From Oscillospiraceae bacterium (GTDB lineage Bacteria; Bacillota; Clostridia; Saccharofermentanales; Saccharofermentanaceae): 43,042 nt of DNA. The notes beneath the pieces are model-generated. The model was not told where the DNA came from, did no database searches, and saw nothing but the letters and a program-made list of their open reading frames with translations. This document shows positions 14,710-28,815 of this stretch, in pieces. A program made the position numbers and the translations under genes. The stretch lies in contig CADAOK010000001.1 of NCBI GenBank assembly GCA_902789515.1, positions 1 through 43,042 on the forward strand, read 5' to 3'. Every line of letters starts with the position of its first letter. Positions within the stretch are counted from its first letter, which is position 1.

Positions 14710-14892
14710 AGTTACCCAATTGGGTAAGTCCTGAGGGTAACTATTTACCATTTTGTAGACAACAGCACCTGTATTCAACATCAGAGTTACCCAGATGGGT
14801 AACTCCTTAGGGTAATAATTTATTCTTTTGTAATCGACGACAACAATATTCACTTCTGAAGTTACCCAATTGGGTAAGTCTTGAGTGTAACT
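14710..14892 (+). repeat. 75-bp tandem repeat with palindromic cores (about 2.4 units)
   Basis: The core AGTTACCC-AATT-GGGTAA starts at 14710, 14785 and 14860, exactly 75 bp apart. The first and third cores contain the perfect 16-bp palindrome TTACCCAATTGGGTAA (14712-14727, 14862-14877); the second has TTACCCAGATGGGTAA. A further GGGTAA(C) lies exactly 25 bp into each unit (14735, 14810; GTGTAAC at 14885), so GTTACCC can pair with either of two partners. The 40-45 bp linkers have diverged heavily but keep TTTTGTA and TATTCA. No ORF explains it. It fills most of the 260-bp gap between a plus-strand and a minus-strand gene end. Confidence 0.85.
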
Positions 14893-25365: not shown

Positions 25366-25905
25366 TCAATAATTCTCTGCGCTTACTTCAAAATAGCTCT
25401 GAGGATGAGCGCATACCGGGCAGACCTCGGGAGCTTTTGTGCCGACTACGATGTGACCGCAGTTTCTGCACTCCCAGACCTTGACCTCGCTCTTAGCGAA
25501 GACTTCCTGAGCCTCAACGTTCTTGAGGAGTGCTCTGTAACGCTCTTCGTGACGCTTCTCGATAGCACCTACGAGTCTGAACTTGGCAGCGAGAGCCGGG
25601 AAACCCTCAGCCTCGGCTGTCTTAGCGAAATCCTCGTACATGTCTGTCCACTCGTAGTTCTCGCCGTCAGCTGCTGCACCAAGGTTCTGGGCGGTGTCGC
25701 CGATGCCCTCGAGTTCCTTGAACCACATTTTCGCATGTTCCTTCTCGTTATCAGCTGTCTGGAGGAAGATGGCTGCGATCTGCTCGAAACCTTCCTTCTT
25801 AGCCTTTGATGCGAAATATGTGTACTTATTCCTTGCCTGAGACTCGCCTGCGAATGCAGCCTGGAGATTCTTCTCTGTCTGTGTGCCAGCGTACTTGTTT
25901 GCCAT
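25366..25905 (-). CDS. Rubrerythrin
   Basis: A 179-residue non-haem di-iron peroxidase. The N-terminal ferritin-like domain has the expected metal ligands in [15 protein letters not shown] and [16 protein letters not shown] and in the second pair [18 protein letters not shown]. The C-terminal rubredoxin domain has CRNCG and CPVC. It reduces hydrogen peroxide using electrons from rubredoxin or NADH and protects anaerobes from oxygen. It is monocistronic, with AAGGGAGG before ATG. Complete and canonical. Confidence 0.96.
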
Positions 25906-25999
25906 ATGTGATTCCTCCCTTGGATGTTAGATAGTAACAGTATAGCGGTTTTACAAGAATATAACTGTTAATTTTGTATTGCGGAGTTTTCCAAAGAAA

Positions 26000-26168
26000 T
26001 TCCAGATTAACTCCCCGCTATGCAGGGACATATTCTGGAAATAACGCCAATACTGCCGGTATTTCCGGAAATCATTCCAGACTATGCAGGGACAAATTCT
26101 GGAAAAAACAGTGATTTGACTGATTATTCCAGATATTGTTCCAGACTATACGGGAACAGAATCTGGAA
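26000..26168. repeat. 64-bp tandem repeat with TTCCAGA/TCTGGAA arms (3 units)
   Basis: The core CTATGCAGGGACA begins at 26018 and 26082, with the variant CTATACGGGAACA at 26146: exactly 64 bp apart. Each unit ends in TCTGGAA (26034, 26098, 26162) and has the inverse arm TTCCAGA upstream (26000; 26075; 26127 and 26139), so each can fold into a hairpin. Spacers between units are not conserved except for degenerate TTCC...A blocks. It fills the 276-bp gap between the rubrerythrin start and the glycoside phosphorylase stop. No ORF of its own. Confidence 0.85.
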
Positions 26169-26181
26169 TTCGGACTTCTGC

Positions 26182-28815
26182 TTACCTGAGTTCGACTACG
26201 ATCCCGTTCTCGCCCGCACCCAGGCTCTCCGCCGGGACTTCGAACTCCGCGCCGCCGCATATATATTCAGTACCGTTAACAGTAACCTTAGAGATCACAT
26301 ACGAACCGTAATCCTTGCGGCCGGCGTTCACATAAGTGACCTTCAGCGGATGACCATCGTGATACAGCGAGACTTCCGCCCTGCCGTCAGAACCGAACTG
26401 GTCAGCGATAAGTTTCGGAGACAGTACGAGACATCCGCCGCGCCCCGACACACCGAACATCTGTTTGAGAACGAGCATGACCGCCCAGCTCGCAGCACCC
26501 GTGAGATACGGATACATTCCGCGGCCCGTGCCGTTGAAGTACTCGGGGATTCCCGGATACATCCTGCCGCCGTCAGGACCTTCTGCGACGCTCTGCTTAT
26601 AAAGTGCATCGAAGACCTTAAAGCCCTCACGCGCGAATCCTCTGGAATACAGCGCATACGCGTACATGACCGCCATGTGGCAGAACACTGCGCCGTTCTC
26701 TTTCTCGCCGAAAGCAAAACCGAACGCCCTGCCCATGTTCATCTTGACTTCGTTGAAGTTTGTATTGAGCCTGTAGCCTCCGAGTGCGGGCGCATACAGG
26801 TATTTGTCTGCTGCCTTGATGACTTCTTCCACCATGGAATCGGTCGCAGTGCCGAACATGACCGTGAAAACCTGAGAAGTGAGCATCATACGGACACCGC
26901 CGTTAATCACTCCCTCGACTCTCTCTGCATCGTTGTCATAGTAACCGTTGAACCAGGACAGGCCTTCGCCGTCGGTAACGATCTCGTTTGCCCTGATATG
27001 TTCTTTGATCGACTCGGACATACGCTCAAGCTTGGCAACAAGATCCGAAGCAGATATCTCCACACGCGCGCCGCTAACACGGGAAGCAACTTTCTTCTCA
27101 TAATCCGCAAGGCATGACGGCAGAGCTGCAACATCAGAATCAGCAGAATCCAGAAGTGAAGCGAGCTCCTCGAATACAGCGATTTTCTCTCTTCCGGAAG
27201 CCTTGATCATGTCTGCAAGGATCTGGATGGAACCGGCGTAAGCGGCCGTAAATGCGACGCTCTCGCCTCTCTTGGAAGCCATGTCGAGGGCATCGTTCCA
27301 GTCAGCACCTCTAAGCCTCATGTTGCCGTGCCCGCCGCGGTCGAAATACTGCGTTGCCTGCTGCACGAGAAGGTGCTCTATCACGCTGCCGGCATATACT
27401 TCGCCTGAAGCTGTCTTCTGCTTGGGTTCTTCCGAAGGATCGAAGCCGTCATCTGTGGCTTCTCCTCTCATTATCTGTCTGTCCTTGAAGTACGGCTGCT
27501 CCTCGAAAAGGAAATCATAGTCTCCTGTCTGCTCGAGGTAAAGGTTGACCGTGAACATCGGCCAGAAACCGTGATCCATCCACACTCTCGCGATGCCGTT
27601 GCGGTCAGCAATGAACTCGCCACGCTTAGTGCCGATGATAGTCGCATTGGATCCGTCCGTCCTGATGCCCGCGAAGTAACTTACAAGGTCTTCTCTGGCC
27701 TTGGAAGGATCGCGGAGAAGCAGTGCGAGCGAATCCTGCCAGAGGTCTCTCCATCCTCTTCCGCCCCTGCCGTAATCGTGGTAAGGCAGGAATGAGCATC
27801 CGTAGAGCTTACGAAGCTGCGGCTGCACGCTGACCCACTCCATCCATCCGTCGAACTTCCCGTCGCCGGTCGCCGTGTGGATTATCTTCTGGTCTTTCCA
27901 GTATTCTTTCAGAGCGTCAAACGCAGATGCGACATTGGTGCTGTCAAGGTACTCATATCCCTCCGCACCGAAACTCATCACCACGTTATATACCGCACTC
28001 TCGCCTGCCGCCAGTGTCTTAGGGGCAAAACTGAGTCCTGCGAAAGCCTCCTCGCCGTTTACGACGGAACCTGCGGCCATGCCTGCAGCTCCTGTCTTGG
28101 CACCTGCGGGATTAAGCAGGTTGCCGCCCTCGCCGGTGTAAGAAATGACTGTCGGGAACACTTCAGCAGGAGCATTACCCTCACCGTCTCTTCCGTAAAC
28201 AGCATAAATATCAGAATTCCTGTGATGTCCCCTCTCGTCGAAAGCCATTGTGGGCTCGACCTCAACGCCGATGTCCTTGACACGAATAACGTTAAGGAGC
28301 GAAGTTACATGCCTGTGGTCTCTTATGTGGTCTGCGCCGCGGGCGAAGATCGGGACAGCAGCGGAAGGTGTGAACTTGATCTCGCTGCCGCTGTTATTGG
28401 TTATGCGGACCTGCATGACTTCCGTTCGCGCCGTGCCTACAGGTGCGAAGTCCAATGTCTCGCAGACAACGCCTTCAGCAACCTCGAGAGAAGTCTTCTG
28501 CCAGAGCATTCCGCCCTCGAGCGTCATTGTATCTTCTGCAGCAAGTTGTGCCAGAGAGAAACCGAATGCGGAGCGAAGACCTATGCCTTCAATATCAAAC
28601 CAGAAGTTCCTGCCGTACATCGACTCCTGGAGCTCCTCGACGACTGCCGGGGGAAGCAGGTACTGATTCTGGGAAAGCCTGGAATCGCCTCTTCCCGTAG
28701 GCGTGATGCAGCTTAACACTCCGGAAGGAGAAGCTATAGGCAGATAAAGGAAACTGGTATCGCCTGTATCTTTTGCAAGGAAAGTACCGTTCTTGTCCGT
28801 AAACTCATATCTCAT
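26182..28815 (-). CDS. GH94-type glycoside phosphorylase
   Basis: An 877-residue protein with the N-terminal beta-sandwich and (alpha/alpha)6 barrel of GH94 (cellobiose phosphorylase-like). Marks are GRGGRGWRDLWQDSLALLL, LRGADWNDALDMAS (ADWND at 504-508, the region of the general-acid Asp) and the ending SLYHDGHPLKVTYVNAGRKD. These enzymes split beta-glucosides with phosphate, yielding a sugar 1-phosphate, in the cytoplasm. Cellobiose, chitobiose, cellodextrin, laminaribiose and beta-1,2-glucan phosphorylases share the fold, so the sugar is not decided. No sugar transporter is adjacent, which leaves no contextual clue. GGAGGG precedes ATG. It may be cotranscribed with the MATE gene 18 bp upstream. 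Confidence 0.88.
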   Translation of the reverse strand: MRYEFTDKNGTFLAKDTGDTSFLYLPIASPSGVLSCITPTGRGDSRLSQNQYLLPPAVVEELQESMYGRNFWFDIEGIGLRSAFGFSLAQLAAEDTMTLEGGMLWQKTSLEVAEGVVCETLDFAPVGTARTEVMQVRITNNSGSEIKFTPSAAVPIFARGADHIRDHRHVTSLLNVIRVKDIGVEVEPTMAFDERGHHRNSDIYAVYGRDGEGNAPAEVFPTVISYTGEGGNLLNPAGAKTGAAGMAAGSVVNGEEAFAGLSFAPKTLAAGESAVYNVVMSFGAEGYEYLDSTNVASAFDALKEYWKDQKIIHTATGDGKFDGWMEWVSVQPQLRKLYGCSFLPYHDYGRGGRGWRDLWQDSLALLLRDPSKAREDLVSYFAGIRTDGSNATIIGTKRGEFIADRNGIARVWMDHGFWPMFTVNLYLEQTGDYDFLFEEQPYFKDRQIMRGEATDDGFDPSEEPKQKTASGEVYAGSVIEHLLVQQATQYFDRGGHGNMRLRGADWNDALDMASKRGESVAFTAAYAGSIQILADMIKASGREKIAVFEELASLLDSADSDVAALPSCLADYEKKVASRVSGARVEISASDLVAKLERMSESIKEHIRANEIVTDGEGLSWFNGYYDNDAERVEGVINGGVRMMLTSQVFTVMFGTATDSMVEEVIKAADKYLYAPALGGYRLNTNFNEVKMNMGRAFGFAFGEKENGAVFCHMAVMYAYALYSRGFAREGFKVFDALYKQSVAEGPDGGRMYPGIPEYFNGTGRGMYPYLTGAASWAVMLVLKQMFGVSGRGGCLVLSPKLIADQFGSDGRAEVSLYHDGHPLKVTYVNAGRKDYGSYVISKVTVNGTEYICGGAEFEVPAESLGAGENGIVVELR

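What the first reader, a model, noticed from the sequence alone, without database searches (positions are those of the whole stretch)
26000..26168. 64-bp tandem repeat with TTCCAGA/TCTGGAA hairpin arms
Three units keep exact 64-bp spacing of CTATGCAGGGACA-like cores, each bracketed by 7-bp inverted arms. The third unit has base changes in the core (TACGGGAACA) yet keeps both arms. The sequence is unrelated to the 75-bp array, but the design is the same: inverted arms, short core, poor linker, period in the sixties to seventies.
Basis: seen in the sequence. Interest (0 to 1): 0.7.

Follow-up and report, generated by a model that had tools for sequence, protein, structure and literature searches.

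The report
Fast-evolving four-word palindromic repeat family
The tandem hairpin array is one site of a scattered family of short palindromic repeats that sits just behind genes in a genus of gut bacteria; every unit carries the same short DNA word four times, and related species use a different word in the same design, once at exactly the same spot.

Summary
The array is real: three units at 26000-26040, 26063-26104 and 26127-26168, between a GH94 phosphorylase stop codon and the rubrerythrin promoter region. Each is a 41-42 bp near-palindrome carrying one 7-bp word four times, W-N5-W-N4-W'-N5-W' (here W = TTCCAGA). It is not unique: two solo copies lie elsewhere in the genome. Same-genus genomes hold the same architecture, often in tandem (period 51-65 bp), with other words: TTCCGGY, TTCCCNN, TTACTGC, TTGAGGC. 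At the orthologous GH94-rubrerythrin gap, two relatives carry the TTACTGC version, 94-95 bp from the rubrerythrin start as here. Both stems covary strongly and all four half-words change together. Of 34 arrays none lies inside a gene: 22 lie between co-directional genes (20 nearer the upstream gene's 3' end), 11 between convergent genes, 1 between divergent genes. In 13 of 27 longer gaps an intrinsic terminator precedes the element. Copies are gained and lost between species. This is a REP/BIME-like dispersed palindrome, but with no GTAG/CGTC tag and no Y1 transposase found in this genome or in several carriers; regulatory operators and terminators fit worse. Partner and mode of spread are unknown. 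New variant of a known kind.

The parts
26000..26040 (.). Unit 1 (41 bp): half-words 26000-26006, 26012-26018, 26022-26028, 26034-26040
   Evidence: found de novo; folds on either strand with z -4.5/-4.8
26041..26062 (.). 22-bp linker 1-2
   Evidence: same length as linker 2-3 and as the G042 linkers, different sequence
26063..26104 (.). Unit 2 (42 bp): TTCCGGA 26063, TTCCAGA 26075, GCAGGGA 26086, TCTGGAA 26098
   Evidence: (matches the four-word pattern with 0 mismatches)
26105..26126 (.). 22-bp linker 2-3
26127..26168 (.). Unit 3 (42 bp): TTCCAGA 26127, TTCCAGA 26139, ACGGGAA 26150, TCTGGAA 26162
   Evidence: z -5.4/-5.3
26182..28815 (-). GH94 glycoside phosphorylase gene; its stop codon lies 13 bp from unit 3
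   Evidence: Pfam PF17167, E 4e-25; distances
25366..25905 (-). Rubrerythrin gene, start codon 94 bp from unit 1
   Evidence: NF045767 E 5.5e-75; distances

Best explanation
The array is one locus of a genus-restricted family of dispersed, non-coding palindromic repeats of REP/BIME-like behaviour. The unit is a 42-bp element with four copies of a 7-bp word (two direct copies 12 bp apart, a 4-bp centre, then the mirror image). As a single strand it folds into an outer stem, a 5x5 internal loop and an inner stem. Units have spread to sites behind genes and between convergent genes, were amplified in tandem with a near-constant linker, and are gained and lost between species (shown). Because the four half-words change together between species, something reads the word: most likely a sequence-specific DNA-binding, hairpin-binding or strand-processing protein that drives spread and homogenises copies (inferred, partner not found). 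The position behind genes is best read as tolerance: sites where an extra palindrome does little harm. A mild local effect on mRNA 3' ends or supercoiling is possible but not shown.
For: Further copies in the own genome at C40 and C79. Same architecture with other words in the genus: TTCCGGY, TTCCCNN, TTACTGC, TTGAGGC and TCACGGC found de novo. No match in 48 genomes of other genera of the order. Covariation over 26 elements: 89.8% of cells paired, 10 of 14 pairs changed on both sides, score 0.512 vs 0.118 shuffled and at most 0.137 slid. Four half-words agree within an element far more than when reshuffled among families: 215 vs mean 153, 0 of 2000. Location: 0 of 34 arrays inside genes, 11 convergent, 1 divergent, 22 co-directional of which 20 are nearer the upstream 3' end. 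Strong terminators between stop codon and element in 13 of 27 gaps against 0.6 expected. Presence/absence between G042 and G055: 220, 121 and about 200 bp blocks, and two units vs one at an orthologous site. Composite TCACGGC + TTCCGGT blocks recur at several loci, as in mosaic repeats. REPs in other phyla show the same 3'-end and convergent bias (PMC3733652).
Against: Copy number is low (5 elements here; about 15 to 20 in the richest genomes) compared with classical REPs. No GTAG/CGTC tag at the element ends and no Y1 transposase in G000, G006, G061 or G064. In G042/G055 the Y1 gene is flanked by its own unrelated hairpin. Empty sites are wider than the element and show no clean target duplication, so transposition is not demonstrated. 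Gene calls used for the context count came from a home-made codon scorer. Most genomes are incomplete MAGs.
Confidence: 0.6

Rival explanations
1. The units are operators of a transcription regulator (a double inverted half-site, for example an OmpR/BceR-type response regulator), tandem here to regulate rubrerythrin.
For: Four half-sites about one helical turn apart on one DNA face; the words change together as recognition sites would; near-helical periods (p about 0.014); the C40 copy lies between a histidine kinase and an ABC transporter gene.
Against: 11 arrays lie between convergent genes and only 1 between divergent genes; co-directional copies hug the upstream 3' end. Neighbours are unrelated housekeeping genes. 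The rubrerythrin gap has its own conserved inverted repeat closer to the gene. The C40 kinase orthologue in G040 has no element behind it.
Confidence: 0.12
2. The units are RNA hairpins that end or protect mRNAs (3' UTR stabilisers or bidirectional terminators), kept at each gene for that purpose.
For: Position just behind stop codons, 4-30 bp for the TTCCAGA copies of this genome; strong folding; covarying stems; palindromes suit convergent genes.
Against: A separate intrinsic terminator precedes the element in 13 of 27 gaps. No terminator-like T tract at the array. Pairing alone does not explain why outer and inner stems share one word. Orientation relative to the upstream gene is mixed. No Rfam match.
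Confidence: 0.2
3. Neutral debris: old tandem repeats grown by slippage and hairpin-templated correction, with no trans-acting partner at all.
For: Copy-number variation; diverged linkers; template switching within a hairpin can equalise its arms.
Against: The same word is shared by unlinked loci of a genome, which local correction cannot do; spacing and architecture are kept across species.
Confidence: 0.08

Closest known systems
REP / BIME elements (repetitive extragenic palindromes) and REPINs
   Same: Short intergenic palindromes, dispersed, clustered or tandem, composite; behind genes and between convergent genes, rarely divergent; stems differ between families and species (PMC3733652).
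   Different: No GTAG or CGTC tag, no associated Y1 transposase found in this genome, low copy number, four-word 42-bp unit with one word in both stems, and word replacement in the same position between species. That survey does not mention Firmicutes or clostridia.
MIRU-type intergenic tandem repeats of mycobacteria (from own knowledge)
   Same: Tandem, intergenic, dispersed units of 50-100 bp with variable copy number.
   Different: The units here are near-perfect palindromes with internal word repetition; no coding overlap seen.
Integron attC sites (from own knowledge)
   Same: Hairpin of two 7-bp stems separated by about 5 unpaired bases; low sequence but high structural conservation.
   Different: Outer and inner words are direct, not inverted, repeats; no GTTRRRY/RYYYAAC boxes; no gene cassettes between the units.
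BceR-type operators with a 7-4-7 inverted repeat plus half-site (from own knowledge; no paper found)
   Same: 7-4-7 inverted core with flanking half-sites.
   Different: The 3'-end and convergent location does not fit promoter operators.

Membership tests
REP element | Short palindrome located between genes | tested here: met
   0 of 34 arrays inside genes
REP element | Bias to the 3' end of upstream ORFs and to convergent gaps | tested here: met
   20 of 22 co-directional arrays nearer the 3' end; 11 convergent vs 1 divergent
REP element | GTAG or CGTC tag at one end | tested here: not met
   Flanks of the five TTCCAGA copies show no shared tag
REP element | Cognate RAYT / Y1 transposase in the genome | tested here: not met
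   PF01797 absent from G000 (75.5% complete), G006 (97%), G061 and G064; present in G042/G055 but flanked by another hairpin
REP element | High copy number (hundreds) | tested here: not met
   5 elements in G000, about 17 in G042
Transcription-factor operator | Located upstream of regulated promoters | tested here: not met
Intrinsic terminator | GC-rich hairpin followed by a T tract | tested here: not met
   0 sites in 25850-26300
Known structured RNA (Rfam 15) | Covariance-model match | tested here: not met
   No match at gathering score or E<=1
Integron attC | Inverted R/L boxes with GTTRRRY / RYYYAAC | tested here: not met
   Words read TTCCAGA as direct repeats 12 bp apart
Integron attC | Cognate integron integrase | not tested
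   no search made

The most novel reading that the evidence does not exclude
A new class of dispersed element in which a dedicated, non-Y1 protein reads one 7-bp word four times per unit. The protein's specificity shifts between sister species and the whole genomic set of sites shifts with it, including a site kept at the same position (GH94-rubrerythrin gap) with a new word.
Probability: 0.25. Interest if true: 0.75.

Novelty: new variant of a known kind. Interest (0 to 1): 0.47.

Why it matters
REP-like repeats are described mainly from Proteobacteria, cyanobacteria and a few other phyla, tied to Y1 transposases. A family in gut Clostridia without tag or transposase, whose recognition word turns over between closely related species while its architecture and at least one position persist, gives a natural series for finding what reads and spreads such elements, and offers a typing marker for uncultured rumen species.

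Tried and rejected
BceR-type operator idea (from the C40 copy between kinase and ABC transporter): rejected as the general explanation after the context count and because the G040 kinase orthologue lacks the element. RAYT/REPtron: Y1 genes absent from several carriers; where present in G042/G055 they carry their own hairpin GGGGTCAGACCCC. Intrinsic terminator and known RNA. Plasmid or phage origin: no match; five viral contigs with the loose pattern have poorer arms and mostly look like chance or unrelated palindromes. A latent consensus TTnCnG does not reveal many further families in the genus: outside known carriers, matches were mostly single and about as frequent as the reversed-pattern control. 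Helical phasing of the periods (51, 54, 61-65, 75) is only suggestive (p about 0.014, families not independent). In notes 3 and 4 I wrote 12 convergent arrays; the table gives 11, so the sign test is 11 vs 1, p about 0.003, not the 0.0017 printed.

Full report
CHECK. Reading window 25400-26700 confirms three units between the GH94 phosphorylase gene (26182-28815, minus; PF17167) and rubrerythrin (25366-25905, minus; NF045767). The cores are exactly 64 bp apart. Chance expectation of such arms in the window is 0.003.

OWN GENOME. The pattern finds two more solo copies: C40:15967-16008, 4 bp behind a histidine kinase gene, and C79:3427-3468 (context). The 75-bp array of the window (14711-14891) is a second dispersed family (GTTACCC words, three per unit) with further copies on C71, C76 and C107, none in 72 relatives.

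RELATIVES. In the same genus (73 genomes searched) the same architecture occurs with other words. G042 (JAFWQC01, sheep omasum MAG) and G055 (JAFRRJ01, goat omasum MAG) carry TTCCGGY, with 64-bp tandem period in G042; G064 (CAMNGC01) carries TTCCCNN with 54-bp period. A de novo scan of neighbouring loci added TCACGGC (62 bp), TTGAGGC (G058, 63 bp) and TTACTGC (G006/G061, 65 bp); G050 has seven tandem 51-bp copies or partial copies. The scan is selective: 4 hits in 100 kb against 0.67 in Markov shuffles. No match in 48 genomes of other genera of the order.

SAME SITE, OTHER WORD. G006 and G061 keep the GH94-rubrerythrin order (GH94 83-84% identical over the held stretch). Their gap holds one and two units of the TTACTGC type, 6 bp behind the GH94 stop and 95 bp from the rubrerythrin start, against 13 and 94 bp in this genome; the region between start codon and element aligns. 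So position and architecture are shared while the word differs. An independent insertion at the same spot is not excluded.

COVARIATION. Over 26 elements, 89.8% of cells pair, 10 of 14 pairs show two-sided changes, and the covariation score is 0.512 against 0.118 shuffled and at most 0.137 slid. The alignment mixes related copies, so the shuffles are not probabilities, but the slid controls agree. The four half-words also agree with each other within elements beyond any of 2000 reshufflings among families. Pairing explains W against W' but not why outer and inner words are the same; a common reader of the word, or common descent plus homogenisation, is needed.

LOCATION. Of 34 arrays (a few orthologous) none is in a gene; 11 are convergent, 1 divergent, 22 co-directional, and 20 of those are nearer the upstream 3' end. 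Neighbours are unrelated, mostly housekeeping genes such as tRNA synthetases, a polynucleotide phosphorylase-like gene and hydF. In 13 of 27 gaps of at least 35 bp a strong intrinsic terminator lies between stop codon and element (0.6 expected), so there the element is not the terminator. Orientation relative to the upstream gene is mixed.

TURNOVER. G055 lacks 220-, 121- and about 200-bp blocks that carry the element in G042, and at an orthologous site G042 has two units and G055 one. Block ends are wider than the element with no clean duplication. In G042 composite blocks of TCACGGC and TTCCGGT units recur at several loci.

READING. These features match REP/BIME-like repeats (PMC3733652: uni- and convergent location, close to the 3' end of upstream ORFs; PMC8266576: palindromes preceded by a GTAG-type tetranucleotide and processed by TnpA-REP). 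Two defining features tested fail: the tag and the Y1 transposase. I therefore do not file it as a REP but as a REP-like variant. Shown: architecture, dispersal, location, covariation, turnover. Inferred: a trans-acting reader of the word and active spread. The operator and terminator readings fit worse for the reasons above.

Noticed in passing
window 14711-14891: 75-bp tandem array of GTTACCC-N4-GGGTAA-N7-GGGTAAC units is itself a dispersed family in this genome (C71 x3 behind a polynucleotide phosphorylase-like gene, C76 at 74-bp period, C107), in none of 72 relatives.
   Followed up: partly
window 25937-25969: Inverted repeat AACAGTATA...TATAACTGTT upstream of rubrerythrin, conserved in G006 and G061: candidate rubrerythrin operator, separate from the array.
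   Followed up: no
L051 2284-2552, L054 2434-2688, L059 2472-2590: Composite blocks of two word families (TCACGGC 39-bp units, period 62, plus TTCCGGY units) recur at several loci of G042 like a mosaic element.
   Followed up: partly
L328 2465-3714, L329 2384-3624: Y1 (RAYT-like) transposase gene in G042/G055 flanked on both sides by the hairpin TTTGATGGGGTCAGACCCCATCAAA, unrelated to the TTCCGGY elements.
   Followed up: partly
L316 3778-3888: G006 has a further tandem of TTGTAC-word palindromes with the same 12-bp internal spacing.
   Followed up: no
L332 3740-4110: Array of seven 51-bp TTACTGC units or partial units in G050.
   Followed up: no
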